NCBI RefSeq assembly: GCF_029542785.1
Contig: NC_083372.1
Coordinates: forward strand, 930,001-994,000
DNA from: Malassezia japonica
Lineage: Eukaryota > Basidiomycota > Malasseziomycetes > Malasseziales > Malasseziaceae
Direction of reading: 5' to 3'
DNA: 64,000 nt
Shown: positions 2,218 through 63,725 of the stretch, piece by piece
Position numbering within the stretch: the stretch's first letter is position 1
How the letters are laid out: each line of letters starts with the position of its first letter
The notes under the pieces: model-generated
Told to the model about the DNA's origin: nothing
The model's input: only the letters and a program-made list of their open reading frames with translations
Database searches by the model: none
Position numbers and translations under genes: made by a program

Positions 2218-3115
2218 CTACGATGTAGGTGTCATAGTTTTAGTTTGTGTTCCAGGTGAAGTGGCGGTGCTGCTCGTCTCTGCACCATTTCCCCACCAAT
2301 GCACAGTTTCTTCCCGCATATAGTCCAGATCGTCCTCATTTAGGTCGCTGGTCGTTTCCCAGTGCTGGTCAAATTCAAGGGCCACGGCATCCACGGGCGC
2401 GCTGGGGGCCAGCGTCGCTGTAGGCACGTCCACGTTACCCTGGCTGTGGGAGCGCGGTGGATCAAACGCGTGCAGATAGGACATAGGGGGCAGCTTCCAG
2501 CTGTTTTCACGGAGGCGTTTGTGCTGGGTTAGAAAGTATACGTACGCGTTCGCGGTCCTCCTCGACGCGGCGTAGGACGTCGGCGCGCGACACACGCGCG
2601 ATGTCGGCCATGTCGCCATGTTGTGCACGTTCACGCACGCTGCGATGAGTATGGCTACCTACCTTGCGGCGCGCTGTTCAATCGTCTCCTGGAGCGAGTT
2701 GAGCAGACGGGGGTCAAAAATGCGTTTCGACTCCCAAGATGCGAGGATCTGCCGGGTGCTCGTAATGTTCAGCACGGCATCCCAACTATCTGGCGGCACG
2801 ACCATGTTGATGATCGCAGGGAGGTCGCGCACAGCAAGCGTGCGGTACACGCCGACCTCTTCGGGGCTCGTCTCGAAATCGTCCGCCAGGAAGGCATCGA
2901 GCATGAACAGCACATTGATGCGCGTGTTGGACGGCGCCTGCGTCAGCCATGCTACTTACTTTGGCACACTCTGTCATGACACAGTCCCAGATATCGTCCG
3001 AACACCGCGTCGCGTAGCGCAGGGCAAAAGCCACCGTTTTTCGGATTGACTGTTCGCTAGCATTGAGGCGCTTCAGCAGCGCCAGGAATTCCATGCGGAC
3101 CTGGAATGGGTCCAT
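2218..3115 (-). CDS. CTK3: CTD kinase subunit gamma (CTK3)
   Basis: Subunit of the CTDK-I kinase that phosphorylates the RNA polymerase II C-terminal domain. The product is 276 aa from four exons: 3115-2960, 2937-2663, 2639-2546 and 2523-2218. The three introns are 22, 23 and 22 nt. The N-terminal MDPFQVRMEFLALLKRLNAS and SDDIWDCVMTECAK are the CID-like domain that marks Ctk3. Exon 2 adds NTRINVLFMLDAF. The C-terminus contains HKRLRENSW. Removing each 22-nt intron is needed to keep the frame. It is divergent from EAF6 across about 80-140 bases. The last, acidic 60 residues are not recognised as a domain. Confidence 0.88.
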
Positions 3116-3259
3116 GGTTACTCTTTTCTCGTCTCGGTAGCGCTAGACGAGGTCGTATGACGCGCCGCCCACTTTGCGAATCGGGCGCGTCGAGGCGTGG
3201 AGAAAGTCGTCGCGATCGCCGCCGCCGGTTTCTATTTGCCTCCACGACCACCCGTGCTG

Positions 3260-3703
3260 ATGCCGGCCCCTGCTTCGGAACCTGCGCTGCGTGGTTCGCT
3301 CGACGAGGCGAATGAGCGGTACGATACAATCAAGACGCAGCTAAAGGATGGCCTTGCTCGCAAGCGCCAGACCGACCAGGATCTTACCGACTTGGAATCG
3401 CAGATTTACCTATATGAAGGCTCTTACTTGAACACCACGGCACTGAGCGGCGGCAATGTGATCCGTGGCTTTGACTCATATATGAAGGCGGGTGCAACGT
3501 CGGGAGGCAATCCCCGTTCGGCGCCCTCATCGGCTACGGCGTCCAACGAGGACCGTATGTTTAGCACAAGCAGCGCTACCTACCAGCGCAGCCTTGCGCT
3601 CAAGATGAACGAGGCCACAGAAGATGCCTCGCGTTCTGACGATGCCAAGAACAGCGGCACCGGTACGCAGTCTTCTGGCTATAAACTGAAGCGCAAGGCG
3701 TAA
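3260..3703 (+). CDS. EAF6: NuA4 histone acetyltransferase subunit EAF6
   Basis: Small subunit of the NuA4 and related MYST acetyltransferase complexes. The 147-aa reading has an N-terminal coiled coil (about residues 10-45) ending in LESQIYLYEGSYL, then GGNVIRGFDSYMK. Both are hallmarks of EAF6/MEAF6. The rest is Ser-rich and low complexity and ends in a basic YKLKRKA. I chose the ATG at 3260 (MPAPAS). An in-frame ATG at 3197 would add 21 residues of poor quality. No intron is seen. It shares a short divergent promoter with CTK3 and converges on the hydrolase gene downstream. Confidence 0.87.
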   Translation: MPAPASEPALRGSLDEANERYDTIKTQLKDGLARKRQTDQDLTDLESQIYLYEGSYLNTTALSGGNVIRGFDSYMKAGATSGGNPRSAPSSATASNEDRMFSTSSATYQRSLALKMNEATEDASRSDDAKNSGTGTQSSGYKLKRKA

Positions 3704-3860
3704 CGCCACGCTGACGCGGTGTTTGCCTCGCTACCTTCTAGCGTGTTTGTGTCGTTTGTATACTAGTAAAAATTTATGATAGTGATTGTCCATCGTACAT
3801 TAATGGTCTCTACGGCGTCGCGGCCTTTATCATCGCAATCAACTGTATTTACAAGGTGAT

Positions 3861-8985: not shown

Positions 8986-11900
8986 ATGTCGATTGACAAG
9001 GATTCTGAACATCTTACGGCGCTACTGAAGCATATGGGCGACAAGCGCCATTTGCTGATGGGCCAGCCTGGCTCTGGCACGGAGACGCCGGAGGATCATA
9101 AGCTGGAGAACACGGCGTACGTTTGAGTGACTAACCATAGCGGCTACACGGACACTGTGTACCCCGACAAGCAAAGCCAGGCAATCAAGGTGCAAGAGAT
9201 TCTCGAGGCTAACGGTTTCATTCCGCAAGAGCTCGTGCCGTCGGAAGTCGCTTGGTTCTACGAGAATCTCGGCATCGACGACACCTACTTTGCTATGGAG
9301 AATGCGGAGACGATCGCCGATCATATCCTGTCCTTGTACGGTGCCAAGATTGCCGAGTTCACCAAGCACACTGGCTATCTCAACGTCGATCTGCAGAAGA
9401 AGTCGGAGAACAGCGCGGTCTTCATCCACTCAAGTCCTGCGGGTGTGAGCCGTCGCGCGGGTCCCCAGTGGGAACGCATCATCGACGAGCAGTACCTCAA
9501 CCAGTCCACGGTGGACCGTGCCTTCCGTCTGGAGACCTACCGTTCGAAGGGCACTGCATCGAGCCACTTCCCGGAGCAGCTGCGTTGCTACTTCCTGCAC
9601 CGCTGCGATTTTGTGCAGCCCCGCCCTGAGCGCAACTCACCCGAGTACCGCAACATCCGCGCGGTCTCGGACAAGACCTTCTTGAGCAAGGTCAGCGAGC
9701 ACACACTCGAGATCTACCAGGCCGTGATGGACGAGGCGCTGCGCCGCCAAGGTCCCGTGATGGAGATGTACGAGGTGGTCGGTACGCAGGAGCGCCGGAT
9801 CGTGATTGCCTACCGCATGGGTACCACGTCCAACTTTTTTAGCGCGCTCTCGGACCTCTACCACTTCTACGGCCTGTACTCGTCGCGCAAGTATGTCGAG
9901 CAGTTCAGCAACGACATCAGCATCATCTCGATCTACCTCAAGCCTGTGCCTAACTCTCAGGCGCCCCCAATCGAGCTCAGTATTTTCCAGGTGCTCAAGG
10001 AGGTGTCGCTCATCTACGTGCTGCCCGACAACCCCTTCTTCATGACGGGTGCCGAGGCCACGCACGCCGTGCAGGAGGCCACCTACGCCTATGTCGGCTG
10101 GCTCTTTGCGCAGCACTTCTGTAACCGTCTGGGCCCGGCATACGAGGCGCTGCGCAAGATTCTGGACGAGTCGGACTCGCACCAGGCTGCTGTTCTGAAC
10201 GACATCAAGCTGCGTCTGCGTGAGGAGACTTTCACGCGTCAATCGATCTACGAGGTGATCCAGAACTTCCCCAACATTGTGCGCCTGCTCTATGTGCACT
10301 TTGCCAACATCCACTACCCTGGCCAGCAAGACCAGGACCTGGCGCCGACGCTCAGCCACCAGCGTCTCACGCGCGAGACATTGCTCTCGGATGACCAGAT
10401 GCGTGACTTTATCATCAAGACGGCCAACAACTCTCACGAGCGCCAGGTGTTCCTTGCGCTCCTCTCGTTCAACAAGTCCGTGCGCAAGACCAACTTTTAC
10501 ACTTCGACCAAGGTTGCCCTGAGCTTCCGCTTGGACTGTACGTATTGTTACTGACCCAGCCTCGTTCCTCCCCGAGTCGGAATACCCGATCAAGCCCTAT
10601 GGCATCATCTTTGTCGTCGGCTCCGAGTTCCGTGGTTTCCATGTGCGTTTCGCCGACGTGGCCCGCGGCGGTATCCGCATTATCCGCAGCCGGAACCGCG
10701 AGAACTACTCGATCAACCAGCGTACTCTCTTTGACGAGAACTACGGTCTGGCACACACGCAGCACCTCAAGAACAAGGACATTCCTGAGGGCGGTGCCAA
10801 GGGTACGATCCTGCCCAACATGGATGCGAACCCTCAGCTGGTGTTTGAGAAGTACGTCGATGCGATCCTCGACCTCTTGATCAAGGGCAACACGCCTGGT
10901 GTCAAGGAGGAGATCGTGGACCTGATCGGAAAGCAAGAGATCCTCTTCTTTGGCCCCGACGAAGGCACGGCGCACTACATGGACTGGGGTGCGGAGCACG
11001 CGCGTGCGCGTGGCGCGAGCTGGTGGAAGTCGTTCACCACCGGCAAGTCGGCCGCGACCCTCGGTGGTATCCCTCACGACAAGTTTGGTATGACCACGCG
11101 CTCCATCCGTCAGTACGTGCTGGGCATCTACCGCAAGCACAACCTCAAGGAGGAGGAGATTACCAAGGTCCAGACCGGTGGTCCTGACGGTGACCTCGGC
11201 TCGAACGAGATCCTCCTTTCCAATGATAAGACGATTGCGGTGATTGACGGTTCTGGTGTGCTGTACGACCCCAAGGGTCTGCACCGCGAGGAGCTGCGCC
11301 GCCTTGCGCGCGAGCGCAAGATGATCTCGCACTTTAACGCCGAGTACCTCTCGAAAGGTGGTTACCGCGTGCTGGTGGAGGACCGCAACCTCACGCTGCC
11401 CTCGGGTGAGCTGGTGGCGGACGGTGTGGCGTTCCGCAACAAGGCGCACCTGATCTACGAGGCGGACCTCTTTGTGCCCTGCGGTGGCCGTCCCGACTCG
11501 ATCCAGATCGGTAATGTGAAGGAGATGTGCACGCAGGACGGCAAGTGCAACTACAAGTATATTGTGGAAGGCGCGAACCTCTTCCTTTCTCGCCAGGCGC
11601 GTCTGGAGCTCGAGAAGCGTGGCGTGATTCTGTATCCCGACGCGTCTGCCAACAAGGGCGGTGTGACGTCGAGCAGTCTCGAGGTCCTGGTCGGTCTGGG
11701 TCTTACGGACCGCGAGTACATCGACAACATGCTCTTCCACAACGATGAGCCGACCAAGTTCTACATGGACTACGTGCACGACATTGAGAAGATCATTGCG
11801 CGCAATGCCCAGGCCGAGTTCGAGGCCATCTGGCGCGAGCACGGGGAGACGGGCAAGTTCCGCTCGGTCATCTCCACTGAGCTGTCCACGACCCTGAACA

Positions 11901-17344: not shown

Positions 17345-18332
17345 ATGAGCGGCTGTACGAATGCGCCGCCGCCGCTGCAAGGCACGCTGGCCCTGTACCA
17401 GACCGAGCCGGTCTCGCTTCCGTACTTTGAGACGAATGGACACCACGCGAATAAGCTCGTCTTTCTTGCGGGGCTGACCGACACGATCGGCGTCGTGCCC
17501 TACCTCCCCCGCCTGGCCAGTGCGCTGGACAAGATCGGCTACGCGCTGGTCCAGCCTGTCAAGGGCTCGGACCTCGGTGGATTCGGTACGGCATCGCTTG
17601 AGGGTGACGCGCAAGAGGCGGCGCAGCTGATCGAGCATCTCACGACGCGCGCGACGCACCCGGCCTCGGGCAAGGTGGTCGTGATGGGCCACTCCACTGG
17701 GTGCCAAGACGTCGTCCAGCTCCTCTCGACCGACCGCCGCGCGGCTAAGGGAGGAGATGTGAACCTCCGTGTGCACGGCGGCATCCTCCAGGCGCCTGCG
17801 TCCGACTATGACTACTTTGAGGCGCACAAGACCGAGGAAGAAGCCCAGCTGCTCAAGAAGAGCGAAGAGCTGATCCAGACCGACCAGGCACAAGCACTGC
17901 TTCCCCGCGACGGCATCCCCCCGAAGCCGTCTGCGACGCACGGCCGTGGCCCGGGCAATGCGGACACGATTACCAAGCCGGCCTTTACGGCGTACCGCTT
18001 CCAGAGCCTTAACGGATCCGGGGGAGACGACGACTTCTTCAGCAAGGACCTGAGCGACGAGCAGATCCGCAAGGCGCTGCACCCGGCGCTCTCGCGTGCG
18101 CCTCTGCTCATGCTGATCGGCGAAAAAGAGTACGTTGCGCGACTGACCTAGCGAATATGTGCCCCCATCCGTGGACAAGGTCGAGCAGATCAAGCGGTAC
18201 ACAGCCGTGCTGGAAGGCGACCCCCTCCGTGCGCTGCTCGTCCCTAATGCGAATCACAAGGTGGACGATTCCGAGGCACAAGATAAGGTGTGCGAGGCGG
18301 TGATCGACTTCCTGAGCAACCTAAGCGAGTAA
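17345..18332 (+). CDS. DUF1749 / UPF0613 alpha/beta hydrolase
   Basis: The product is 321 aa. Exon 1 is 17345-18129, then a 22-nt intron (GTACGT donor, CTGAC branch site), then exon 2 at 18152-18332. The nucleophile elbow is GHSTG, in VVVMGHSTGCQD, near residue 120. The C-terminus NANHKVDD provides a likely catalytic His. This family includes SidJ-like siderophore ester hydrolases of moulds, but I see no siderophore genes nearby, so the substrate is open. A CACGTG lies 24 bases before the start. It converges on the kinase gene with a 54-base gap. Confidence 0.8.
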
Positions 18333-20478: not shown

Positions 20479-23400
20479 CTATTCGAGGATCTGGCGCTCG
20501 AGAATGGCGCCGATCTCGCGGCGCTTTTCGAGCCATTCGCGGAAGGTGGGATACGTGCGGTCTCCACGGTCGCTGATCCATGACATGGAGAGGTCTGCAT
20601 CTGCGGACGAGAGCGAGTGGCGGTGGCGCGGTGTGCGCGCACCGCTCGACGCGCCGTCGTCGTCGTCGTGCAGGTTCTTGCTGCGTGCGTTGAGCTTGTC
20701 GAGCAGGTAGCTCGCAAAAGCAATAAGGTATCCCTGGTGTTAGAGAAATCACGTACATAGCGTCCCAGATAATTGTGAAATGCGACTTGCAGCTGCTGCT
20801 GCTTGGGCGAGTTGGGCTCCGCACTGTCCGCGCGCAGCTTGATGAGGCTGATGGCTTTGCGCAGGTTCTGGATGGTCTCCATGCGGTCGATGACGCGGTC
20901 CGTGAGCGACTTGGCGATCTTGCCGTTGCTGAGCACGCCGACGAGCTGTAGGATGCAGCGGTACTCGCCTTGCATCAGCAGCTCGTCTTCACGCAGCTCG
21001 CGTGCATTATCCGGCGCCGAGTCGCCCTGCGCAAAGCGCAGCTGCACCTCGCTTGTAAGCAACTCATGGCCGTACTGGTTGATGCTCACAATCAGCGCCG
21101 CAATGATCATGCCGCTCGTCGTACGACCACGGCCCATCTGGCAGTTGAAGACGGTCATCGCACGCGTATCGATCGCGTGCTGCACGCGGTCCTCGAGCTG
21201 CGAAAAGACCTGGGGGACAGGCGCTTGCTCGTCGGTGATGGCGACGCGTGCATACTCGACGCGGAAGCCTTCGCGGCGCACGAGATCGTAGACCTCGCGG
21301 GGGGTAAGCACGTCTTCGTCGCGTACCGTCTCCCAGAGGGGAATAATCTCAAAGTCACCTTCCTCGGTCTTGACCTCATCGTGGAGCAGGACACGGCCAT
21401 TGCGCTGGTGCGCCTCCTCGATTAGCTCGCGCTTGAGCGAGCGCTCGATGCGCTCCACGACATCGGTCGTGACACCCGTCGCCTCGACGTTGGTCAGCGG
21501 CTGGTCGGCGAGACGCAGGACGTGAGGGCGGCCGTTGACGTAGAGCACCGGCTCCTCGCGCAGGTTTGTCCAGACAACGCTCGCCTCGTCGCCGGCGCCG
21601 GCGCCCATGCGCGTGAGACCGCGGCGCAGACCGTCGACGGTCGGCATGCCGCAGCCCCACGTCTCGCGCGCGGTCGGCACATCGCTGGGGCCCAGCGGCG
21701 AGGTGGCGGCGCCGAGGTGCACTAACGGGCAGACGCCCCGTAGGTTCGGCATGCCTTCCACACGCAGCGGCAGACCCGCCTTGAGAATCCCGCTGAAAAA
21801 GTCCGACTTGAGCATGGTCTGTGCGCTGAGCACGTTGCCGCTGCGGTTTTGCACGACCTCTTCGACCTCGTCGCTGAGCGCCATGCCGTCGCCGACATCC
21901 ATCTTGCGCAGCGGCGTGATGGTCGTCATGTCCACCTTGTCGAGGTCCTTGCTGATGGTGGCCAGCACAGGCTGCCGCTTGAGGAAGCGCTCAAAGGTCT
22001 GCTTGACCATCGTCTCGGGGTTCACCGAGTTGAGGTAGGCTTGGAAGAGGAGCAAGTGGAAGTAGCGGCGCAGGCCCTGCACACCGTCGGCAATGTGCTG
22101 CAGCTTCTCCTCGTCGCTCGACGCTTCTTGGGCCGCGACACGCGCGTCTTCAATAGTGCGGCGCAGGTTGATGATCGAGCTGCACTGGTCGATGCAGTCG
22201 TCCACGACGCGCTTCACCTCTTGGCCGTGGGGAATGACACGCAAAAGACTGTTGGTGACGTGGTATGACTGGCGCTGCTGCGGCTCCTCGCCGTTCGGCG
22301 CCGAGTCTGGCACTGGGAGCAGCAGGCGCCGGTTGCTCTCGGGGCGCACGATCTGGATCCAGCGCTCGATGAGCAGAATAAAGACAGAAACGAGCGTTGT
22401 GCGGCCCCGGCCAAGCTGGCAGTTGACAATGATCGGCGACGCGTCCTGGTACAGCGCCAGCACCGTGCTCAGCAGGTCCATTACGTCGGAGACGTCCAGC
22501 GACTTTTCGGCCGTGATCGGTACGCGGCGGAAGACGAGCTGGATGTTGCCGGGGAGCGAGTCGGCCACGTCGTCCATCACGTTCTGGACCGTGGCAATCT
22601 CGTCGGGCTTGGCATCCTCCCAGAGCGGCACCACCGTTCCGTCCTCGGTCTCGGCGTGGAGCAGGAGTTTTCCATCGCTGTTGTCGAGCTCGGCAATGAC
22701 GTCTTTGCGCAGGCGGTCCTCGAGCTGCATGAGGCGGTCGGGGGTGATGCCGCTATAGTCCTTGATGTTGCGTAGCGACAGCTCGCGCTGGCGCAGGCAG
22801 TACGGCCGTCCGCTCACGTACACCAGTGGCTCCTCACGCAGGTTGATCCAAGTCACTACCTGCGGCGCAGTGCTCGTCGGCGACGGCATCTGCTGCAGGA
22901 CCGTGTCGAGGAGGCGGTGAATGCCCTGCACTGACGGCTGGCCCGTGCCAAAAACGTTGGTTTCGGGCACGCGGCGGAAGTTGATCGCGCCGCCGACCGC
23001 CGTGTCCGGCCCCAGCTCAACAAACTCGCGCCAGACGTCGCGTTTGAGCAAGAGGCCCGAGTGGAGCACGGTGCCGGAGCGGTTGTGCACGACAAACTCG
23101 GAGAACTCGTCGCCAGTGACCTGTGCACCCTGCCCCGCAACCTCGCCAAAACGCGCCGAGACTGCGGCGGAAGGCGGAGCGAGGCGCCCCGCCCCTCCGC
23201 TGCTGATCAGCGACAAATCAGACACGGGCTCAAAGAGCGACAGGTGCTGGTGCAGCGTTCGAATGCGCTGAATCCCCCGCCAGATTTCGGCGTGCTGCTT
23301 GAGCCAGTCGACAAAGCTGTGCTGGAAGACGGCGGTGCGGCTCTCTTGCACATAGGACGCAAACGCGATCAGGAAATAGTACACTTCGAGCGACTTGCCT

Positions 23401-42626: not shown

Positions 42627-42700
42627 GTACCAAGAGGGGGGCCACGCCTTGGGTGAGAAGCCCAGCGGTTTGATCCTCAACCAACCGTTGTGAAGGCACC

Positions 42701-45523: not shown

Positions 45524-47419
45524 CTATGTGTCGCGCCTGCGCCGCGCCTCGGCAAAGATGCCGCCGGCACCGTAGTCCTCAACACGCCCGGCATAGCAGC
45601 CAGACGACAGGGGGAGCATGCGCGCGCCAGAGCCCGTCCATAGGAACTCGTCACGCAGCACACGCTGGATGGTATCAAAGGCTTCCTGCGTCGCGTACGC
45701 AATGCCAGTGCGGGGATCGCGGTAGCGCGCAGGAAGCCCGGTGATGACGCAGGTGCTCTGCCGGGGGCGAAAGGGGCGGTTGCGCGAAGGGACGATCGGG
45801 AGCCGGTCCCACTCACAGTGGTCGCCCAGCAGCATCCGGAACTCGTCCGCCCATGTCGCGCTGGGGTCCAGGTTGCAGAGCGAAAGGATCGTGCGGGCAG
45901 TGATCGTCGTATCAATCGGCTCGGACGGAGTCTCCGGGGGAGGCTCGGGCGTGTCGTGCGACTTTTCCGGCTCGTCCTCAGCCTTGATGGGGCCCGCGGG
46001 GGGCGGGGCGGTGGGTGGGGAGCGGGCAGGTGCAGAGGGTTGGGCAGGCTGCGAGGGCTGAGGAGTAGGCGTCGTAGGTGTAGGAGTAGCAGAAGGTGTA
46101 GGAGTAGTCGATGGCGCAGGAGCTGCAGAGGGCACCGGGGGCGCCGAGGGCGCCGAGGGTGCTGAGGATGCAATAGGTGCAGGAGTCGCCGACGGCGCCG
46201 AGGTCTGTACAGGCGTGTCGCTGCGCTCAGAAGGCGACAGGGTGTCGGGCGCCGCATCCGGGGGCCGTTGCGCAGCTTGCGCAGCAGACGAGCTAGCCTC
46301 GCCCTCCGCGCCGTCCTTGGCCTCGGCTTGCTCGGCGCTGGGCACCTGTTCGGCGCCTCGCCCCGGCTCCTCGGCGCTGGGCGCGTGCTCGTCGTTGCTT
46401 GACCGCACTCTATCCTCCTCGCCGTCTCTGGGCGCCTCGGCGTCCTTCTTCTGTGCCTCTTCTTGCTCGGCGCCTGCGCCAGCATCGCTTTCCTTGGCTT
46501 CCTCGACCTCCATCTCTCCGTTTTCGGCGCGGATGCGCGCGCGCTCTTCCTGTGCCGCGCGCTCCTCTTCTGCCGCGCGTTCCTCGCGCTCGCGCTGCTC
46601 CTTTGCCGCGCGTTCCGCGGCGGCCGCGCGCTCTGCGGCAGCCGCCCGTGCCTCGGCCTCCTTCTGCTCGGCGCGAATCGCAAACACGCTCTGCGAGAGG
46701 CCGGTGCTAATCCAGCGCACGTACGGACCCTTGATATCGCGTTTGCCCGATGCCCGCTGCCGCGCCTTGCGATCTTCTTCCTGCTGCAGGAAGCGCTGGA
46801 GGCTCTGAATATTCTCCTCTTCCGTCTCGAGTGCCTCTGAGATGAGCGCGTCCTGCGTCAGCATCTTGGCGCGCTTGCGGACCGGGCGCGCGCGCACTGA
46901 TGCGCGGCGCTCCTCGGCCTCCTTGAGCTTGGTCTGTGTCTCGAGCTTGGACTGGACCGTCGAGTGGCGCGAGCTGCTGCGCAGCCCCCCCGAGCTCGGC
47001 GCAGGAATAGGATGCGAGGGCCGGCGGGGCTTGCGCTCGACAGGCCGCGGCGCCGCCGCCGTCGCGGGCCCCATCGCCGGGCGCATCGCGTGCAGCGGCA
47101 CGGCGCGTGGCCGCGCCGCCTTGCGCTCGCGCTTCTCTTCGCGCTCGAGCGTCTGCTCCGCCTCGACATCCTCCCCGCTCCCCTCTTCCTCGCTGTTTCC
47201 GTCAAAGTCAGAGTCGACAATGTCCGGCTCATCTGCGTCAGCACAGCAAACGTACCGTCGCCGCCCTCGAACTCGATGTCGTCCTCGACCTCGGCAAACA
47301 TTTCGTCGCCTTCGACTTCCTGTTGCTCCAGCAGTTCGCGCATGCTACATGAGCTAGAATACATACCGGTTGCCCGCCGTCGCACGCCGCGCGCGCTGCT
47401 GGATCATCATCTCGGCCAT
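45524..47419 (-). CDS. SWC2: SWR1 complex subunit SWC2/VPS72 (YL1 family)
   Basis: Histone H2A.Z-H2B chaperone and DNA-binding subunit of the SWR1 remodeller, 616 aa. Exons: 47419-47367, 47344-47256 and 47232-45524. The introns are 22 and 23 nt. Splicing restores RRATAGNRMRELLEQQEVEG and then an acidic EDDIEFEGGDDEPDIVDSDF, the YL1 N-terminal H2A.Z-binding region. A basic stretch and long Ala/Glu helix (about 210-260) and a Pro/Ser/Thr-rich linker follow. The YL1 C-terminal domain is RPRQSTCVITGLPARYRDPR then TGIAYATQEAFDTI. The C-terminus ends ARRRRDT. Confidence 0.92.
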
Positions 47420-47465: not shown

Positions 47466-48411
47466 CTACAAGTCGACGACGCCGAGGGCGCCCCACGGCG
47501 GGAGAATCACGCTATCTTCTTCGCCATCCATGCGCGGAGTGCGCAGGACCGCGTCTTCGCCGTTGGTGCGCTGCGGACTCGGCGTCGACGTGGCGTCGTC
47601 CCACACTTCGTTCCGCGCCTCGGTGTCGGTCAACGCGACGATCGGGTGGGTGCGCGGCACCTGGACGTTTTCGTCGTGCAGTGCGTCCAGGACGCAGGCA
47701 GTGTGCCGCGTAATGTAGGAGAGGACCGAGTCCGGCGGGAGGCCCGCGTGCGCGAGCATCGCCGAGTTGATCTGCGCCGCGAGCGCCGTGCGCCGCGCGG
47801 GGTCGAGTATGGCGGGCGACGGCGTGTCGCTCGCAGTTGTATAGGCCAGTAGCGCGACCATCGCATCGATCTGGGCGACGTACACGTCGCTCTCCTCCTG
47901 CGGCAGCGTGCGGACGCGCGCATTCAAGAGCTGGATCTCGGCGAGGGCCGCCTGGAGCGTCGCATTGTCCTCGCCTGCGGCCTGTGTCTGCGCCTCATAC
48001 TCGGCATAGAGCTTACGCACAAGCTCAACAAACTGCTGCATGTGCAGGTTGAGCCAGAGGTGGAACGGATTCAGCGACACGGGGTGCGGCGGAAACGAGC
48101 GCTGCCGCGCAGGGTTGTCCGGCGTCGGGCGGGCCAGGAGCACGCCCGGGAAGTGCGTGTCGCACAGCGCAAGCGCCGCGTCAATGTGCCCGTCGTGTAT
48201 CGCGCTGCAGACGCCTAGGTGAGTTGGGGGACGTACGTTGGCGCGCCGCCGCATGCTCGCGCTGCGCGGTCGACAGCTGCATGTCGCCGTCACAGCCGGC
48301 CTCGTTCATAAACGCCACTGCTGCGTTCAGGTGTCCATGGTGCACAAGGTAGTCGAGCACGACACGCTGCACGACCCTGGGCGGCACCCGCCCCGCATCG
48401 GCAGACGCCAT
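47466..48411 (-). CDS. LisH-CTLH-CRA domain protein (GID/CTLH E3 ligase type)
   Basis: The product is 307 aa. Exon 1 is 48411-48237, then a 22-nt intron, then exon 2 at 48214-47466. LisH is VVQRVVLDYLVHHGHLNAAV with AFMNEAG (about residues 13-40). CTLH follows (REHAAARQRVCSAIHDGHID, ALALCDTHFPGVL), then NLHMQQFVELVRKLYAEYEA and a CRA-like helical region to about 235. The C-terminal about 70 residues are unmatched. This order is shared by Gid8/TWA1 and the C-terminal half of RanBP9/Vid30. The protein is longer than Gid8 and has no SPRY domain, so the exact orthologue is undecided. Confidence 0.82.
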
Positions 48412-48454: not shown

Positions 48455-50054
48455 ATGAGCACGAATCGGCTGCAGCGGACGCACCGCTCGACCAAGATCC
48501 CCAATGTCAAGCTGCGCCCGGTGCCTGTGTCGACCGCGTCGCGCGAGCGGCAGCGTGCGGATGCCGAGGACGACGCGCACTTCCAGGCGACACGCGACCA
48601 CGGCACAACGCGCGGCGCGCATACCGCGCAGGACTTTCTCGCGTCCAAGCCGCTCCAGGGCGTCGTACTGAGCTTTACCGGGATCACAGACGAAAAGGTA
48701 CGCGTCATTTCTCATGCAGCGTGAGCTTGTCGACATTGCCGAGCAGCTCGGAGCGCGCGTGCACAAAAATCTCACGAGCGAAGTCACGCACCTCGTCGCG
48801 CGTCAGCCGGGCTCAGAAAAGTACAAGTGCGCGGTGCGCTTTCATATGCACGTTGTGCGGCCCGAGTGGCTGTACCTCGTTCGCGAGGCATGGCTCGCTG
48901 GGGAGGACGCGGTCGATATCGCGCAGCTCGCAGACGAGTCGCGCCTCGGCGCGCTCGAAGGCATGCACATTGCGCTCAGCGGCGTAGACGGTACGTGGCC
49001 AACCTCACCCAGAATCCACACGCGCGCGCCTCGCAGAGCGCATCCACGAGCAGGGCGGCACGCTCGCGCCGCGCCTCTCGCTCGACGGATCGCTTACCCA
49101 CCTCGCGTGCGGCCCGGATGACGGCCGCATCCGCAAGAGCTATACACGCGTCGTCGAGCAGCAGGCGCTCGCGCGGCACTATACCACAGACGCCCTCCCG
49201 GCGCCGATCCGCGCCGCAGCCGCTATCAAGCTCGTGCACGTCGAGTGGATCGACGAGTGCTGCGACACGGGAACGATGCTGCCCGAGGACGAGTACGACG
49301 CGCGCGCGCCACTTGCGCCACGGCCGCCACGGCCGCAGCCACCGCCGCGCATCCCGATGGCCGAGCGGACGATCTCGGCGCCGGCGCCGGCAGCTCCGCC
49401 ACAAAAGGACCTCGCGCGCCTCGTCCACCGCATCCACAGCCAGACCGAGCCGGGCCTGGGGCAGGCACCGAAACGCACAGGACTCCTCGCGCTGACGCGT
49501 GCGGAGCGCTTTGGCCAGGAGGCGCCGAAACTCTTTGCACAGCGCACCTTTCACGTCGCGATGGCCGACGACGCCCGCACGCGGCGCGTCGCCAGCGCAA
49601 TCCGCGGCGCAGGCGGCGTGCTCGTCGCAGAGCAGGACGCCATGTACACCGTGCGCCCGCTCGTGGGGGGCCGGGGGGCGGGCCAATGCGTCACGCACCA
49701 CTGGGTCGAGCTGTGCCTGCACTACGACCGCCTCGTCGATCCCAAGGCGTACGTGGCGAGCGAGCCGACACGGGCGCCGATGCCGGTGCCGGGCGCCGAC
49801 GCGGTGCGCTTCAGCTTCACTGGCGTCGACCGCGAGGGGCCCGAGTACCACCACGCGCTCGCGGCGATCCACGCGATCGGCGCCTCGGTCGAAGACGCGA
49901 TGAGCAGGGCACGTACGACGCACCTCGTCGCAGAAGGCGACGCGAGGCACGGCGTCAAAGCCCAAAAGGCGGCTGCATGGGGTGTACCGGTCGTGGGGTA
50001 TGAATTTCTGCAAAAGGTCCTACGTACAGGGCGGCTCCGCGAAACGAGCGACGT

Positions 50055-54188: not shown

Positions 54189-54292
54189 GACTTTATAACT
54201 CAGTTGGTTAGAGTACCACGTTAACAATCGTTAACAAATCGTGGAAACGGATAATACCGTGGAAGTCCCCGGTTCGAGCCCGGGTAAAGTCA
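54189..54292 (+). tRNA. tRNA-Val (anticodon AAC) with 30-nt intron
   Basis: Acceptor GACTTTA/TAAAGTC, D arm ACTC/GAGT, anticodon stem CCACG/CGTGG and T arm CCCGG TTCGAGC CCGGG all pair perfectly. The loop TTAACA + C is the standard Val(AAC) loop, split after position 37 by a 30-nt intron that itself contains another GTTAAC. Discriminator A. A TTTT run follows at once. Confidence 0.93.
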
Positions 54293-56395: not shown

Positions 56396-59146
56396 ATGAT
56401 TTTCGTCTACAAACGAGGTACGTACACCTTCTATGCTCATAATAGACGGACGTAAAGAGGAGGTCCGCTTCGACAAGGTCACGGCCCGTGTCTCGAAGCT
56501 TTGCTATGGCCTGGACATGAACTATGTGGACCCGATCGAGATCACCCGCAAGGTATGTCGTGTGGCGTAACACTAATACAGGTTATCGACGGTATCTACG
56601 AGGGTGTGACTACGGTTGAGCTCGACAACCTCGCCGCCGAGACGGCCGCGTACAAGACGACGACGCACCCTGACTACGCTGTGCTCGCTGCGCGCATTGC
56701 GATCAGCAACCTGCACAAGGAGACCAAGAAGTCGTTCAGCCAGGTCGTTCAGGACCTTTACGAGTATGGTATGTTGCCAAGTTTAACATGTAGTCAACCC
56801 CCGCACCAGCAAGCACAGCCCCATGATCTCGGATGAGACCTACAAGGCGGTGATGGACAATAAGACGACGCTCGATTCGGCGATCATCTACGAGCGCGAC
56901 TTCCACTATGTACGTTTTTGCTACTTACCCAGAACTTCTTCGGTTTCAAGACGCTGGAGCGTTCGTACCTGCTGCGCATCAACGGCAAGGTGGCGGAGCG
57001 CCCCCAGCACATGCTCATGCGTGTTGCTGTCGGTATCCACGGCACCGACGTTGCGAGCGCGATCGAGACCTACAACATGATGTCGGAGAAGGCCTTTACG
57101 CACGCCTCGCCGACTCTCTTCAACGCCGGTACACCGAACCCCCAGATGTCGTCGTGCTTCCTGGTGTGCATGAAGGACGACTCGATTGAGGGCATTTACG
57201 ACACGCTCAAGTCGTGCGCGATGATTAGCAAGACGGCCGGTGGTATCGGTCTCAACATCCACTGCATCCGTGGTACCGGTTCGTACATTGCCGGCACGAA
57301 CGGTGTTAGCAACGGTATCATTCCCATGCTCCGTGTGTACAACAACACGGCCCGCTATGTCGACCAGGGTGGCAACAAGCGCCCTGGTGCGTTTGCCATT
57401 TACCTTGAGCCGTGGCACTCGGACGTCTTTGAGTTCATTGACCTCCGCAAGAACCACGGTAAGGAGGAGGTTCGTGCGCGCGACCTTTTCTACGCCCTAT
57501 GGGTCCCTGATCTGTTCATGAAGCGTGTCGAGCAGGGTGGTGACTGGACGCTGATGTGCCCTGCCGAGTGCCCTGGCCTCGCGGACTGCTACGGCGAGGA
57601 GTTCGAGGAGCTCTACGAGCGCTACGAGCGCGAGGGCCGCGGCCGTCGTACGGTCAAGGCGCAGAAGCTCTGGTACGCGGTCCTTGAGGCGCAGATCGAG
57701 ACGGGTACCCCCTTTATTCTCTACAAGGATGCTGCCAACCGCAAGAGCAACCAGAAGAACGTGGGTGTGATCAAGTCGTCGAACCTGTGCACGGAGATTA
57801 TCGAGTACAGCTCGCCGGATGAGACCGCCGTGTGCAACCTGGCCTCGATTGCCCTGCCTACCTTTATTGAGGGCACTGGCTCGTCGAAGAAGTACAACTT
57901 TGCCCGCCTGCACGAGACGGCCAAGGTGGTGTGCAAGAACCTGAACCGCATTATTGACATCAACTACTACCCCGTCGAGAGCGCGCGCCGTTCCAACATG
58001 CGCCACCGCCCGATTGGTATCGGTGTTCAGGGCCTGGCGGACGCCTTTATGATTATGGGCTATCCCTTTGACAGCTCCGAGGCGCGCATGCTCAACCTGC
58101 AGATCTTCGAGACGATCTACCACGCTGCCCTGGAGCGCTCGTGCGAGCTTGCCAAGGAGCAGGGTGTGTACGAGACCTACGAGGGCAGCCCTGCCTCGCA
58201 GGGCATCCTGCAGTACGACCTGTGGAACAAGACCCCCACGGACCTCTGGGACTGGGCTGAGCTCAAGGCCAAGATTGCCCAGCACGGTCTGCGCAACTCG
58301 CTGCTCCTCGCGCCGATGCCGACTGCGTCGACGAGTCAGATCCTCGGCTTCAACGAGTGCTTCGAGCCTTACACGAACAACATTTACATGCGCCGCGTGC
58401 TTGCCGGTGAGTTCCAGGTGGTGAACCCCTGGCTGCTCCGCGAGCTTGTCGAGCAGGGCCTCTGGAACGAGGCGATGAAGCAGCGCATCATTGCCCACGG
58501 TGGTTCGATCCAGAACGTCCCCGGTATCCCCGACCGTATCAAGGCGCTCTACAAGACGGTGTGGGAGATTAGCCAAAAGGTGATTATCGACATGGCTGCG
58601 GACCGTGGCGCGTTCATCTGTCAGAGCCAGAGTCTCAACATTCACCTCAGTGCGCCGACCTTTGGCCAGCTTACTTCGATGCACTTCTACGGCTGGAAGA
58701 AGGGTCTCAAGACCGGCACGTACTACCTGCGCACTCGCCCTGCTGCCAACGCCATTCAGTTCACGGTGAGCAAGGAGGACATTGTCGCTGCCAAGGAGTC
58801 CAAGAAGAACGCCTCGGCTGCTGCCGCGCAGGCCAAGGCCGCACCGCAGCCCAAGGTGCACGCTGCTACGGACGCCAAGGCTGCTCCCCCGGCGCCGGCG
58901 CCGGCGCCGGAGCAGGAGGGCAAAGCATACAACGAGGTCGTGAACGGCGTCGGCCGTCTGGGCGTCGACGGCACCATCACCCAGGATGGCCCCGGCTCGC
59001 AGCGCCCAGAGGAGGGCGCGCCGGAGGACTCGGAAGACGCCGGTTTCCAGGCGGCCCTCGAGCGCCAGCGGCGCCGTCAAGAGGAGGCCGACAGGCTTGC
59101 GTGCTCTTTGGAGAACAAGGAGGCGTGCCTGATGTGCTCTGGATAG
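56396..59146 (+). CDS. RNR1: Ribonucleoside-diphosphate reductase large subunit
   Basis: Class Ia enzyme making dNDPs for DNA synthesis, 881 aa. Exons: 56396-56417, 56446-56552, 56582-56768, 56794-56909 and 56933-59146. The introns are 28, 29, 25 and 23 nt and all lie in the first 540 bases. The N-terminal ATP-cone opens [19 protein letters not shown]. Active-site blocks: MSSCFLVC (redox Cys), NLCTEI (catalytic Asn-Cys-Glu), [11 protein letters not shown] (second redox Cys) and [20 protein letters not shown]. The C-terminus ends ACLMCSG with the CxxC shuttle pair. An Ala/Pro-rich linker (about residues 765-820) precedes it. Confidence 0.96.
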
Positions 59147-59300: not shown

Positions 59301-61770
59301 ATGTCCCCACCTAAACTGTGCGTATTTTATGCTCACATAGCGTCCTGCGCCCCCCACCAAATCGGGACTTTTTGCAGGGCTATCCCGGCATCCCTTCGTC
59401 CGAGACGCGGCCGCCCGCGCACTTATCCGGCACCATCGAAATTCAGGGGTCCTCCAAGCCCCTCGAGGCTGCCTGGCTGCGCGTCGAGATGGCCAAGACG
59501 GAGACCTTGCCATCCGGAGAGTCATGGACTGAGCTAATCGGACAGGGCCCCATCGACGTGTGGGTGGCTCCTCAGGGTGTGCGCACGGATGGCGAGTCAT
59601 GGGCGCAGCTGCCATCGGTACGTGCGCATTACTCACCCAGCGGAGTTTTCCGTTTCGCGTGAATATCCCGGAGAAACTTCCGGCTACGCTGCGCTTGGAG
59701 AAGAATGGCGGGATCAGCTATGCGCTCATCGCGACGCTTTGTGCTCGAGTGAAGCGGTACGTTGTGTGCGTGTCTAATACAGTGGCCTGCTGAAGCGTTC
59801 TTCGATCAAGACTGTTGTGCACGATCGCCGCACGATTGTCCTCGAGAAACACGAGCTGCACTCGACGTGGCCGGCGTACAAGTATGTATCGATGCTGACG
59901 CAGTGTCCCGGAAGAGCACGAAGACACTGTGGGTCCGTTCCGTGTGCGTTTGTACAGGAACAAACAGGCATACGCTGCGCTGGATACCTTGGACGTACGA
60001 GTGGTGGTGTATAGCAAGTCACCCGAGACGGTCAAGCTCAAGACGGTCGGCGCATCTGTGCGCCAAACCGTAACCTATCTTCCGTTCGCGAAAGGCGACA
60101 CGGCAGCCGATGGCACACCGAGCACGGCACAGCAGCGCTCCGAGATTCTCGTCCACAAGAACCGCAACGTCCGGAAGAAGATCCACAAGGACGAGTTCTT
60201 GATGTACGACCTTTCGATGACGATCCCCAAGTCGCGCACGCTCATGTCGGTGCACACGGCCAAACATATCGAAATCTCGCACCAGCTGCGCGTCGGTGTC
60301 GAAGTCGGCAAGGAGCGCATCGTGTTTGAGCATCTGAAGCTCCAGATTTCGGCCTTCCCATCGAGTGTGAGCACGGCAACGATGGCACGTATCGGTAAGG
60401 TGCCCTCGCTCTGTCTCGAGGAGGGAGCGGAGCAAGCCGCACCGGTACAGCAACAGCAGCAAGTGTATGCGGAGAACGAGCCGCTGGAGTATCCCCAGCC
60501 GGGCCGCTTTGATCAGTACGAGCGCATGCTCTCCGACGAGACGTCCTCGATCCCTGCTCTGGAGAACGACGCGGCGTTCCTTGGCACGGCTACGCCACGG
60601 GGGCCGCTGGTGTTCCAATCCGATCCCAACTCTCCGACGCAGAACTCGTTCGACGCGGATGCACGCCGCCCAGTCTCTGCAGCGAACCACACTGCGCTGA
60701 TGCAGATGCCCAGCAACGCGCTACGCCCGGGTGACGTCCTCCCTTTCCAGGGCGGATCGCCTCTGGATAGTCCCCGCCGCGTGACACAGGCCTACCCGAG
60801 CTCGCCGCTGGCCACTCGGCACAACTATGGCGCAGAGTCGCCGACGTTTGCCGAGCCGGTGCGGCAGAGCCGAGTGCCGACGACGGCCCAGCTCATTGCA
60901 GAGGACTACAACCGGAGATATTCGCAGATGCCTCCGGCGGCTTCGTCGGCCGCCCAGCCGGTCGCTTCGTCTACCGCGGAGCCTTCTACCCACCCGGCTG
61001 CTCAGAAGGGATTCATGTCGGCAGAGAGCGAAAAGGTGCGCCTCTTTGAGCGCGCCCGTGCCGAAGCCCAAAATTTCCAGAGCGGCTATCAGAATGGCGT
61101 CGAGTTCCCTGAGCAACGAGGCGCAGACGAAGAGAGCGCTGCACCCGCTGCGGCGCCGATTACCGCAGCCGCAACTGCTCCGGTGGCCGCGTCTGGCGCT
61201 TCCAATGCACCTCGCGCCTCCTTCAACTACCCTTCTGCCGCGGACGAGAAGGCGGCTCTGTACGAGCGCGCACGCAACGAGGTTGCCGATTTCCACAAGG
61301 ATGATCCCACTATTGTGCTACAGGACGAGGCGCCTGCACCTTCGCTGATTGCCCAGTCGGTTCCGTCCGCCAAAGCTGCCGCGCCGATCGCGATGCCGTC
61401 GGCAGAGGACGAGAAACAGCAGATGCGTCGGTATTACGAGGCACAGGACGCTGTTGCTCAACACCATGCCGAGCCCGCACCCACGGTCGCACCGCCTGTG
61501 GTCACGACGCCGACTGCAGAAGCGACCTCGCCGCCTGCTACCTCGCCGTACCTGACCAAGTCGGAGGCGCGCGCCGTGGAGGAAAAGACCAAGTTGAATA
61601 ACCACTATGCACAGCAGGAGTCGGGCTCGTCTGCTGCATCCGCATCCAGTACGCAGCAGTTCGGGCTCAAGATGCTCGGCAACGCGGCATCGGCCACCAC
61701 CGACTCCAGCCTGTCGCAGCGTCTCTCCACAGCGCCGCCCCCCCGCCCGCCGAAATTGCCGCTTTCGTAG
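59301..61770 (+). CDS. LDB19: Alpha-arrestin LDB19/ART1
   Basis: Rsp5 adaptor that directs plasma-membrane transporters to endocytosis, 791 aa. Exons: 59301-59317, 59341-59617, 59641-59756, 59783-59881 and 59904-61770. The introns are 23, 23, 26 and 22 nt. The family landmarks are FLQGYPGIPSSETRPPAHLS, ETLPSGESWTELIGQGPIDV, FPFRVNIPEKLP, GGISYALIATLC and LEKHELHSTWPAYN. The first exon (MSPPKL) rests on an unusual GTGCGT donor and is less secure. The C-terminal half is low complexity with four related repeats. The orthologue call rests on the N-terminal arrestin part. Confidence 0.85.
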
Positions 61771-61811
61771 TTTGTCGCGCTTGGACCACCCCACGTGCCA
61801 AAACCATAACA

Positions 61812-62699
61812 ATGCGACTGAGATGGATCGTGTGGTTGAGTAGCGCGCTCGCGGTTAGCGCACACGTCTCGAGTCCCGACATACCAAAGGTTCATGCTGG
61901 CGAGGCCCACCGTATTGCGAAGGACGACCCTTCCAAGGTGACCAAGTACGAGCCTGATCAAGTATACCACAAGGTATCGCTCGATCCCAAGCCTCGGCCC
62001 GGCGATAACACGTCGCTGGGCTGGGCCAACCCAAGTGACAGGAACGGAAGCATGTTGGATGTATGTAACCTATTCTCACACAGCTCGTTGGCAATGGGTA
62101 TCGTGAACCTATTAATGCCATCATTTCGGGTCAATCCGACCCAAGCGTTTTGAGCGAGCAGGGTCTTTTGGACTATGTGCGGTACGCAGCGAGTCTTACG
62201 CAGTTCAATTGGGTTCTCGTTTGAATGCCTACACATCCATCTTGGTGGTCTGCAACATGCGAACTTGGGCGACGGCAATGGTTGGGTGCCGCAACTGTTT
62301 GAGTACCGCAGCTTGCTCTTCCCTGGCTCGCCGGGTGTGTGGGTGGGCTCGTGCTGGGAGAGCTTGGCTGGAGGCAACCACTTTCGCGTATGGAAGCAGA
62401 ATGGCACGGAGGCGAACACAGGTGCCTGGTTCCTGGCCGTGTCGAAGGAGGAATCGGTGGCCGAGCAGCACACCATCATCCCGAATGGATACGACGTGGG
62501 ACGCGATTTGCTCGCCGAAGCGGCCACGCGGGGAGGGTCGTTTGGTGGGCACGCTTGGCGTGCCACCGTCGAATGGAAGACGGGGCTGTTGCCAGAGGGC
62601 AAACGCAGTACGTATTCCCAACTTATGCCAGGTATCAACCACAACATTTCCATCGATGGCCGCGTCGCTGTTCTTACTGTTAAACGTACTTCTATCTAG
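61812..62699 (+). CDS. Conserved secreted protein of unknown function
   Basis: 280 aa as annotated here with the last possible intron retained. Exons: 61812-62060, 62084-62181 and 62204-62699, with introns of 23 and 22 nt. A signal peptide (MRLRWIVWLSSALAVSA) is followed by a mature part with VGNGYREPINAIISGQSDPS, VLSEQGLLDYVRSIGFSFEC, HIHLGGLQHANLGDGNGW and LAGGNHFRVWKQNGTEANTG. It has the feel of a basidiomycete/ascomycete secreted family without assigned function. A further 24-nt segment (62608-62631) has perfect intron signals. Removing it keeps the frame and gives 272 aa. The stop is 4 bases from the convergent TANGO2 stop. Confidence 0.75.
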
Positions 62700-62703
62700 C
62701 TTC

Positions 62704-63725
62704 CTATAATGTCCATTCATATCGCCGCTGGAACTGCTTGCATGCCATTTCCCCTTCTTGCGGATGGGTAAAATCAATGCGCGTCGGAGGTGCATCACCT
62801 TGCAGACGGTATACATCGCGCTCCACATAAATTGCGCGTCGCGGTGAGGAACGTGTAATGAGCAGAACAGTCGAAGTACGCGTGCCGTACCACCCAACAG
62901 GGGTGGGTTGTTTGTTTGCCTTGTTCTCTTCTTGCTCTTTCAGCGTCGCAAATTGCGACCGATCAGCGCTGCTGGGCATCGGAACGGGGTCGACACAGAT
63001 GGTATTGCGCATATCTTCTTGAACGCGGGGCACCCCCGCAGAATAACTCAATATACCAAAGGTCTCCTCAATCAGATTCTCCATAGACGGTCGTTTCTGG
63101 AGAACGTCGTGCAGCATGGCCTGTGCGCGATGGACCTTTGGCCATGGCGTAGAGAGCGTGCTGTTACTCAAGGCATTTACATGTGGGCCGGCGCCCTGTG
63201 AGGGGGTGAGGATCTTTCCGCTGTACTTGTCGTCGCCCCGGTTCGTGACGTACCCAATGTGCGCACGGCCATCACTGATCGAGCCCAACATCAGGTTGAA
63301 GCCACCAAACTGTGACTTGTTCTCAGAGACATAATCAAGGTATCTTTGGATATCAGACGTCTTTGCAGCTGTTTTAGCATGCTCGCGGAGCCAGGAAAAG
63401 ACCAATTCACCCCGCGAATGCAATGGGCCCTTTTGCGCAGCTTTGACCGCGGCAGGCTCGGTAAAATTGGTCAGGATCGCGACAGAACCAGAGCGCGTCA
63501 TTCCGAACCAGGTACCCCCTGCTTTGGAATCTAATCCGCACATAATATCGCCCGGTTGTTCTGCGGCACTCGGCTCACCATTCGCGTCACGCCATTGCGC
63601 AGGTGAAGCAGGTCGGGCCAAGAACTCGTCACGATTGTCGGCTAGAATCCTAGCATTAGAAGATCCACCTTGCATACATACAAGCTATAATCTGGGTCAT
63701 CTGTAGCCCAAATCAAAATGCACAT
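62704..63725 (-). CDS. TANGO2/NRDE-family protein
   Basis: The product is 329 aa. Exon 1 (63725-63682) encodes MCILIWATDDPDYSL. A 32-nt intron (63681-63650, GTATGT donor, CTAAT branch site) joins it to exon 2 (63649-62704), giving ILADNRDEFLARPASPAQWR. The Cys at position 2 and the N-R-D-E box are the defining features of the Ntn-hydrolase-like NRDE/TANGO2 family. The middle has GGTWFGMTRSGSVAILTNF and GGFNLMLGS. Human TANGO2 is linked to Golgi organisation and mitochondrial lipid/haem handling; the fungal role is unknown. Length is slightly above the usual 270-300 aa. Confidence 0.9.

What the first reader, a model, noticed from the sequence alone, without database searches (positions are those of the whole stretch)
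2524..63681. Rigid 22-nt spliceosomal introns with fixed branch-site spacing
About 40 introns can be placed from frame and protein continuity. Fourteen are exactly 22 nt and seven are 23 nt; none is shorter. All fourteen 22-nt introns fit one layout: a 6-base donor (mostly GTACGT, GTAAGT or GTATGT), 7 bases, CTNAY, then 4 bases ending AG. The branch A is thus about 16 bases from the 5' splice site and 6 from the 3' one. The 23-nt class adds one base on either side of CTNAY. Since 22 is not a multiple of 3, failed splicing shifts the frame. This is near the lower limit known for spliceosomal introns and implies tight steric demands on the spliceosome. Examples: 2524-2545, 10538-10559, 18130-18151, 24545-24566, 44502-44523, 48215-48236, 59882-59903. 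I do not know whether this has been described for this lineage.
Basis: partly seen in the sequence, partly recalled or inferred. Interest (0 to 1): 0.75.

Follow-up and report, generated by a model that had tools for sequence, protein, structure and literature searches.

The report
Hard-floor 22-base introns in skin yeast
Genes of the skin yeast Malassezia japonica are interrupted by a great many removable segments pressed down to the same shortest length, 22 bases, which shows how little room the RNA-cutting machine seems to need and is hard to fit with the known shape of that machine in people.

Summary
Confirmed and extended. The window is Malassezia japonica. A gene finder blind to length and branch site puts 62 of 179 introns at 22 nt; 61 of the 62 carry CTNAY with its A at +17. 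Genome-wide the layout GTRHGT-N7-CTNAY-NN-AG occurs 2,745 times, reversed control 13. In 264 kb the rigidity resolves into two floors: branch A at +17 or later, and at least 5 nt from it to the last G. Homology crosses tested junctions; one gene has nine 22-nt introns and a 12-nt microexon missing from its public protein. Slu7, Prp18, SF1 and U2AF65-like genes are present. A human-like B complex was estimated to need about 52 nt from 5' splice site to branch site (PMC6692369); here 16 nt precede the branch A. These are not the shortest eukaryotic introns (Stentor 15-16 nt), and no RNA evidence was available. New variant of a known kind.

The parts
2524..2545 (-). 22-nt intron, Ctk3-like gene
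   Evidence: junction without gap in 5 of 5 homologues shown
2640..2662 (-). 23-nt intron, Ctk3-like gene (one base added after CTNAY)
   Evidence: aligned at the junction in 4 of 5 homologues shown, one gapped
2938..2959 (-). 22-nt intron, Ctk3-like gene
   Evidence: junction without gap in 5 of 5 homologues shown
10538..10559 (+). 22-nt intron, NAD-specific glutamate dehydrogenase gene
   Evidence: junction residue 510 inside Pfam match 472-778
18130..18151 (+). 22-nt intron, DUF1749 gene
   Evidence: junction residue 262 inside Pfam match 10-316
20734..20756 (-). 23-nt intron (one base added after CTNAY)
24545..24566 (-). 22-nt intron; the finder had a longer intron here
27978..27999 (-). 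22-nt intron, NCE101-like gene
   Evidence: junction residue 8 inside Pfam match 4-50
44502..44523 (-). 22-nt intron, Nup85 gene
   Evidence: junction residue 253 inside Pfam match 11-574
45032..45053 (-). 22-nt intron, Nup85 gene
   Evidence: junction residue 84 inside Pfam match 11-574
47233..47255 (-). 23-nt intron, YL1 gene (one base added before CTNAY)
   Evidence: junction residue 48 inside Pfam match 9-223
47345..47366 (-). 22-nt intron, YL1 gene
   Evidence: junction residue 18 inside Pfam match 9-223
48215..48236 (-). 22-nt intron, LisH/CTLH gene
   Evidence: junction residue 59, three residues inside Pfam match 56-235
48698..48719 (+). 22-nt intron, Dpb11 gene
   Evidence: of 6 homologues shown, 4 agree, 1 does not cover it, 1 carries 8 extra residues that look like a retained 24-nt intron
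48991..49012 (+). 22-nt intron, Dpb11 gene; the finder had 46 nt here
   Evidence: junction without gap in the 5 homologues that cover it
56910..56932 (+). 23-nt intron (one base added before CTNAY)
59318..59340 (+). 23-nt intron (one base added before CTNAY), inside a longer predicted intron
59618..59640 (+). 23-nt intron (one base added before CTNAY), inside a longer predicted intron
59882..59903 (+). 22-nt intron
62061..62083 (+). 23-nt intron (one base added before CTNAY), inside a longer predicted intron
62182..62203 (+). 22-nt intron, inside a longer predicted intron

Best explanation
These are U2-type GT-AG spliceosomal introns of Malassezia japonica that have shrunk until they rest on two floors set by the splicing machine. 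Floor 1: the branch-point A does not sit closer than intron position +17 (7 nt between donor hexamer and CTNAY). Floor 2: the last G of the intron does not sit closer than 5 nt behind that A. An intron resting on both floors is 22 nt long, the commonest class. Shown from sequence: the two floors in 264 kb, the 22-nt spike, the genome-wide number of the 22-nt layout, and reading frames or conserved proteins restored across the junctions tested. Inferred: that the RNA is removed, that the A at +17 is the branch nucleophile, that the floors are geometric (closest approach of the U6/5'-splice-site duplex and the U2/branch duplex for floor 1; reach from branch A to the exon-ligation site for floor 2). 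Also inferred: with 5 nt behind the branch A there is no room for a polypyrimidine tract, so the 3' splice site should be chosen by the branch site and the nearest AG rather than by tract binding of U2AF65; an SPF45-type route, as described for human short introns, is one candidate.
For: Length- and branch-blind finder: 26 of 146 introns at 22 nt with GT..AG only, 62 of 179 with learned donor and acceptor profiles, 61 of the 62 with CTNAY and A at +17. Five nonsense-termini controls, run like: 0, 2, 4, 3, 3 at 22 nt of 136-140. Floors: k=7 row 118 matches (3.0 expected), k=6 row 1 (3.8), all k below 7 26 (23.0); for k of 7 or more, m=0, 1, 2 give 4, 1, 108 (3.9, 4.3, 3.0 expected). Genome-wide 2,745 against 13. 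Homology across junctions. Microexon between two 22-nt introns restores HFWTNFEI. Canonical U6.
Against: No RNA evidence of any kind. Floors were measured in 264 kb, not genome-wide. The two floors are not independent: introns at one tend to be at the other (61, 7, 23, 24; odds ratio 9.1, p 3e-6). Positions +7 to +9 differ between 22-nt and longer introns, which a purely geometric floor does not require. One intron of 32 nt has its only CTNAY at +14 with 18 nt behind it. The finder also called introns of 17, 20 and 20 nt, without CTNAY, which I treat as false.
Confidence: 0.72

Rival explanations
1. Recognition optimum rather than geometric floor: the 22-mer acts as one extended motif bound best at this spacing, and shorter spacings are disfavoured, not impossible.
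For: Spacer positions of 147 22-nt matches are non-random (+8 G 54%, +9 C or T 86%, +13 A or G 75%) and differ from 36 longer introns (+8 T 64%, +9 T 56%); branch N is A in 45 of 147 against 18 of 36, p 0.033. The two floors are associated.
Against: Counts stop abruptly on the short side (k=7 118, k=6 1) but tail off on the long side; an optimum would be expected to tail off on both.
Confidence: 0.2
2. Common birth: the 22-nt introns are recent copies of one or a few elements (introner-like), so the fixed length is inherited, not enforced.
For: Two identical introns occur in one gene, and window introns 2938-2959 and 27978-27999 differ at one base.
Against: Near-identical pairs are not in excess among 146 distinct sequences: distance 1, 5 observed and 4.1 simulated; distance 2, 37 and 32.6; distance 3, 193 and 165.9. 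The one identical pair had been collapsed before the test; 0.23 such pairs were simulated.
Confidence: 0.06
3. Not spliced: the segments are retained, or the layout is an accident of GC-rich coding sequence or of assembly error.
For: No RNA data were available here.
Against: 77 matches against 0.3 expected, none antisense; conserved proteins continue across junctions while unspliced reading of the two genes tested stops after 109 and 89 residues. Retention of 61 finder-called 22-nt introns would stop inside the intron in 12, median 23.5 codons to a stop among those with a stop.
Confidence: 0.02

Closest known systems
Stentor coeruleus 15-16-nt introns (PMC9505925: outline and sections 3, 5, 9 read)
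   Same: Near-fixed length, branch A at a near-fixed position, 5-nt tail behind it.
   Different: Branch A at 10 or 11 instead of 17; AU-rich with weak branch consensus; here GC-rich with CTNAY and a longer, degenerate tail of lengths above the floor.
Paramecium, nucleomorph and microsporidian short introns (PMC12862383 and PMC3629993: passages only)
   Same: Introns of roughly 15-30 nt; strict splice and branch motifs in Encephalitozoon.
   Different: Encephalitozoon has 37 introns and a much reduced spliceosome; here the layout alone occurs 2,745 times and the factors sought are present.
Trichomonas vaginalis short (type B) introns, shortest 23 nt (PMC12316389: passages only)
   Same: Branch motif close to the AG; very short.
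   Different: Few introns (63 in all) and a 12-nt fused branch/3' motif; here CTNAY with any base at N and no fused 12-mer.
Human short introns that depend on SPF45 (PMC8363638: abstract and outline) or Smu1/RED (PMC6692369: passages and first part of the discussion)
   Same: Same physical problem: short 5'-splice-site-to-branch distance or truncated polypyrimidine tract.
   Different: Human limit about 50 nt from 5' splice site to branch site in vitro; here 16 nt precede the branch A.
Short introns of other Malassezia (PMC7426719, PMC9241646: passages) and Cryptococcus (PMC11913375: passages)
   Same: Basidiomycete yeasts with short introns.
   Different: Medians of 30 and 40 nt for M. restricta and M. 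arunalokei and a mean of 56 nt in C. neoformans; no 22-nt class or floor was described in the passages seen.

Membership tests
U2-type spliceosomal introns | GT-AG ends with a donor hexamer able to pair with U1/U6 | tested here: met
   Donors GTACGT, GTATGT and the like; +5 G 95%, +6 T 91% in the learned profile. GT..AG was imposed on the finder, and nonsense termini gave no 22-nt spike.
U2-type spliceosomal introns | Branch motif of the CTRAY kind near the 3' end | tested here: met
   61 of 62 blind 22-nt introns; N is any base rather than R.
U2-type spliceosomal introns | Removal restores the conserved protein | tested here: met
   For the junctions tested; Pfam evidence is by matched range only.
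U2-type spliceosomal introns | Spliced RNA or lariat observed | not testable with these tools
   No reads available.
U2-type spliceosomal introns | Major snRNAs in the genome | tested here: inconclusive
   U6 found; U1 not found, but the search rang in no control; U2, U4 and U5 not searched genome-wide.
U12-type introns | Donor [AG]TATCCTT and branch TTCCTTRAY (recalled) | tested here: not met
   Donors and branch sites as listed do not fit.
Stentor-type tiny introns | Near-fixed branch position with a 5-nt tail | tested here: met
   A at +17 with 5 nt behind.
Stentor-type tiny introns | Length 15-16 nt, branch A at 10-11 | tested here: not met
   Spacers of 0-6 nt occur at chance level, 26 against 23.0 expected.
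Fused branch/3'-splice-site introns (Trichomonas type) | Near-invariant 12-nt 3' motif in a very intron-poor genome | tested here: not met
   N and the two bases after CTNAY vary; 2,745 layout matches in 8.43 Mb.
Introner elements | Excess of near-identical copies | tested here: not met

The most novel reading that the evidence does not exclude
The M. japonica spliceosome passes through an early assembly state unlike the human B complex. There the U6/5'-splice-site helix and the U2/branch helix are 15 nm apart, about 21 nt of extended RNA (PMC6692369). Here the whole 16 nt in front of the branch A, fully stretched on that scale, span about 11 nm with no helix formed at all, and the 7-nt spacer about 5 nm. 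So either U2 is docked against the tri-snRNP from the start, or the 5' splice site is handed to U6 only after the branch helix has moved in. U1 and U2 could then not sit side by side on these introns in the usual way, and a 12-nt exon between two 22-nt introns would have to be spliced stepwise.
Probability: 0.35. Interest if true: 0.82.

Novelty: new variant of a known kind. Interest (0 to 1): 0.62.

Why it matters
The extreme short introns in the papers seen here are from ciliates, nucleomorphs and reduced parasites. A yeast in which a large intron class rests on two sharp floors gives a clean sequence-based measurement of how close 5' splice site, branch site and 3' splice site can come, in a genome that kept the standard splicing factors sought here. 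The two numbers (+17 and 5) are ready tests for spliceosome structures and for models of early assembly on short introns, an open question in the human field. Practically, gene models for the genus can go wrong: a 12-nt microexon is missing from one public M. japonica protein, and one public M. yamatoensis protein appears to retain a 24-nt intron.

Tried and rejected
Loss of second-step factors as the cause of the short tail: not supported, Slu7 and Prp18 families are present. METTL16 or SNRNP27 loss as the cause of the rare A at +4: not supported; the PF05971 family (METTL16 by recall; it also rings in bacterial controls) and SNRNP27 are present. A U1 that compensates the +4 C: unresolved. 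Rfam U1 rang neither here nor in any control, so absence is not shown; a loop-I pattern gave 7 places (3 for the reversed control), of which I read two and saw no U1; ATACKTACCTG gave 6 places (4 for the reversed control), all ATACGTACCTG, none ATACTTACCTG; by eye these look like donors read on the other strand, and Rfam found no U1 in the six loci. A hairpin joining donor and branch: no pairing signal at +7/+12, +8/+11, +7/+11, +8/+12, +7/+13 or +8/+13 (z from -1.7 to 0.4); neighbouring positions such as +7/+8 and +18/+20 do depend on each other. Introner-like copying: no excess. Rfam at gathering scores over window and C1 tiles (264 kb) found three tRNAs and no snRNA. (Cia1 WD40 region) says nothing about 22-nt introns: the finder had fused that gene with the Ctk3-like gene. 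Treated as false: the finder's introns of 17, 20 and 20 nt, one 22-nt call without CTNAY (50157-50178), and longer calls that begin with a perfect 22-nt intron. Introns in multiples of three are harder for the finder to see, so the gap at 21 nt rests on the frame-free matrix.
Full report
What the window is. The window is G000:C3:930001-994000 of an 8.43-Mb, 9-contig assembly. A protein predicted from C1 matches the public record MJAP1_000050 of Malassezia japonica at full coverage, and that record's contig length, 2,114,519, equals the length of C1.

Checking the observation. The seven example introns read as described. The four dropped 22-nt matches are one in an exon, one antisense, and two that are 3' parts of a 29-nt and a 26-nt intron.

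A test that does not assume the answer. I built a gene finder from 3-periodic coding statistics, with introns allowed at any GT..AG pair of 10-300 nt, a flat length prior and no branch site, and ran it on 264 kb (window plus 200 kb of C1). It placed 26 of 146 introns at 22 nt and none at 18-21; five lay at 10-17 nt. Five runs of the same kind with nonsense termini gave 0, 2, 4, 3 and 3 at 22 nt out of 136-140 introns. After learning donor and acceptor profiles (from introns of 14-120 nt), still without length or branch model, 62 of 179 were 22 nt, 18 were 23, none 21, and three were shorter (17, 20, 20 nt, none with CTNAY). Of the 62, 61 carry CTNAY with the A at +17.

The two floors. Counting GTRHGT-N(k)-CTNAY-N(m)-AG over the same 264 kb, both strands, k 0-24 and m 0-13, gives 118 matches at k=7 (3.0 expected from 10 Markov resamplings), 1 at k=6 (3.8) and 26 for all k below 7 (23.0). 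For k of 7 or more, m=0 and 1 give 4 and 1 (3.9 and 4.3 expected) and m=2 gives 108 (3.0). Above the floors the counts fall away: branch A at +17, +18, +19, +20 = 73, 16, 4, 6 among finder introns up to 60 nt; one lies below, at +14, in a 32-nt intron with 18 nt behind it. So 22 = 17 + 5. The floors are not independent: of 115 introns, 61 are at both, 7 at the first only, 23 at the second only and 24 at neither (odds ratio 9.1, p 3e-6). Of the 77 matches in the cell k=7, m=2, 57 are predicted introns, 17 lie in sense inside longer predicted introns, 3 are intergenic, none is antisense and none is in a predicted exon (the exon figure is partly circular, since the finder had learned the donor profile). 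Genome-wide this cell holds 2,745 matches against 13 for the reversed pattern. I could not count other cells genome-wide.

Protein evidence. For two window genes I compared chosen homologues (5 of 253 found for the Ctk3-like gene, 6 of 27 for Dpb11). In the Ctk3-like gene both 22-nt junctions (2524-2545, 2938-2959) run without a gap in all five, four of them Malassezia; at the 23-nt junction four of five align, one with a gap four residues on, and one is gapped. In Dpb11 the second junction (48991-49012) runs without a gap in the five that cover it; at the first (48698-48719) four agree (one with a one-residue gap nearby), one does not cover it, and the M. yamatoensis record has eight extra residues, VCHTKLMQ, whose reverse translation fits a retained 24-nt intron of the same layout (inference; its DNA was not seen). 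Unspliced, these genes stop after 109 and 89 residues. Further 22-nt junctions fall inside Pfam match ranges: glutamate dehydrogenase, DUF1749, NCE101, Nup85 (two), YL1, CTLH. Outside the window, two of three 22-nt junctions of a Tim14-like gene lie in a match to a solved structure. A Kre2-type mannosyltransferase gene at C1:80693-82036 has nine 22-nt introns. Its public protein maps exactly with seven of them plus one 56-nt 'intron'; reading that as 22 + 12-nt exon + 22 restores HFWTNFEI, as in M. furfur, with HFWSNFEI in four other fungi aligned. Seven of these nine introns are thus already implied by a public annotation.

Sequence detail. Among 147 strict matches (77 local and 70 pasted from the listing; 146 distinct) the spacer is biased: +7 C 39%, +8 G 54%, +9 C or T 86%, +13 A or G 75%. 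In 36 longer introns +7 is A or T, +8 is T (64%) and +9 T (56%). Donor +4 is C in 124 of 147 (the pattern excludes G) and 73% in the learned profile; the branch N is A in 45 of 147 against 18 of 36 (p 0.033). Of 61 finder introns, phases 0, 1, 2 number 23, 18, 20.

Machinery. U6 is canonical with ACAGAGA. Slu7, Prp18, SNRNP27 and SF1-HH families are present over their cut-offs, as is PF05971, the METTL16 family by recall. A U2AF65-like gene reaches E 3.9e-66, below the NCBIfam cut-off. A G-patch gene on C7, spliced by the finder at a 26-nt and a 22-nt intron, weakly matches SPF45 UHM structures (E 0.0034; best hit another G-patch protein, E 0.0022); its unspliced frame did not match SPF45. U1 was not found. 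Smu1 and RED were not searched.

How it most likely works. Shown: sequence floors and restored proteins. Inferred: removal by the major spliceosome with branch A at +17, the floors reflecting the closest approach of the two RNA duplexes and of the 3' end. Keiper et al. (PMC6692369; passages and first part of the discussion) report about 50 nt as the human minimum from 5' splice site to branch site in vitro, and estimate 52 nt from a 15-nm gap between helices in the B complex. On their scale the 16 nt here span about 11 nm at most, so the human arrangement cannot be carried over unchanged (my arithmetic and inference). With 5 nt behind the branch A there is no polypyrimidine tract; human short introns with truncated tracts use SPF45 in place of U2AF (PMC8363638, abstract), so this is a candidate route, untested.

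Comparison. Stentor introns are 15-16 nt with A at 10-11 and a 5-nt tail (PMC9505925, section 5). P. bursaria has a 15-22 nt group (PMC12862383, passage). A 23-nt Trichomonas intron was called one of the shortest known in 2025 (PMC12316389, passages). E. cuniculi introns are said to be surpassed in smallness only by Paramecium and nucleomorphs (PMC3629993, passages). C. [quoted passage not shown] For Malassezia 'very short introns' are mentioned (PMC7426719, passage) and medians of 30 and 40 nt tabulated for M. restricta and M. arunalokei (PMC9241646). Eight searches of the open library that named Malassezia listed no paper in which I saw this 22-nt class or its floors described; I read only passages, and subscription papers, among them a M. 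sympodialis proteogenomics paper that I recall (id not held), could not be checked.

Verdict. The finding is real at sequence level, stronger than stated, and best described as two floors rather than one length: a new variant of a known kind (ultra-short spliceosomal introns), notable for its number and sharpness in a yeast that kept the splicing factors sought.

Noticed in passing
C1:81146-81201 (L008, outside the window): A 12-nt microexon (ATTTTTGGACAA) between two 22-nt introns in a Kre2-type mannosyltransferase gene; it restores HFWTNFEI and is missing from public protein MJAP1_000050. A 15-nt and a 17-nt exon between 22-nt layout matches lie at C1:63965-63979 and C1:81036-81052.
   Followed up: partly
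P0227 (M. yamatoensis Dpb11) against window 48698-48719: Public protein carries VCHTKLMQ exactly at the junction, which reverse-translates to a 24-nt intron with GTNTGY donor and CTNAT branch site: a likely retained intron at a shared position.
   Followed up: partly
donors throughout; G000: Donor +4 is mostly C (73% in the learned profile), which pairs with neither canonical U1 nor U6 ACAGAGA; ATACTTACCTG, the usual U1 5' end, is absent from the assembly. U1 remains unidentified.
   Followed up: partly
22-nt against longer introns, 264 kb plus listing: Positions +7 to +9 differ: C-G-C type in 22-nt introns, A/T-T-T type in 36 longer ones. No explanation tested.
   Followed up: no
window 31416-31499, 54189-54292, 63777-63885: Three tRNA genes whose spans (84, 104, 109 nt) exceed the 71-position model, so they probably carry tRNA introns.
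   Followed up: no
window 40955-43146: Cytochrome b5, GTP cyclohydrolase I and ribosomal protein L14p/L23e genes carry mostly longer introns (59; 72, 37, 24; 35 nt), in contrast to their neighbours.
   Followed up: partly
literature against G000: M. sympodialis is treated as intron-poor in PMC8476143 (passages), yet the 22-nt layout alone occurs 2,745 times here; annotation with a larger minimum intron might undercount Malassezia introns.
   Followed up: no
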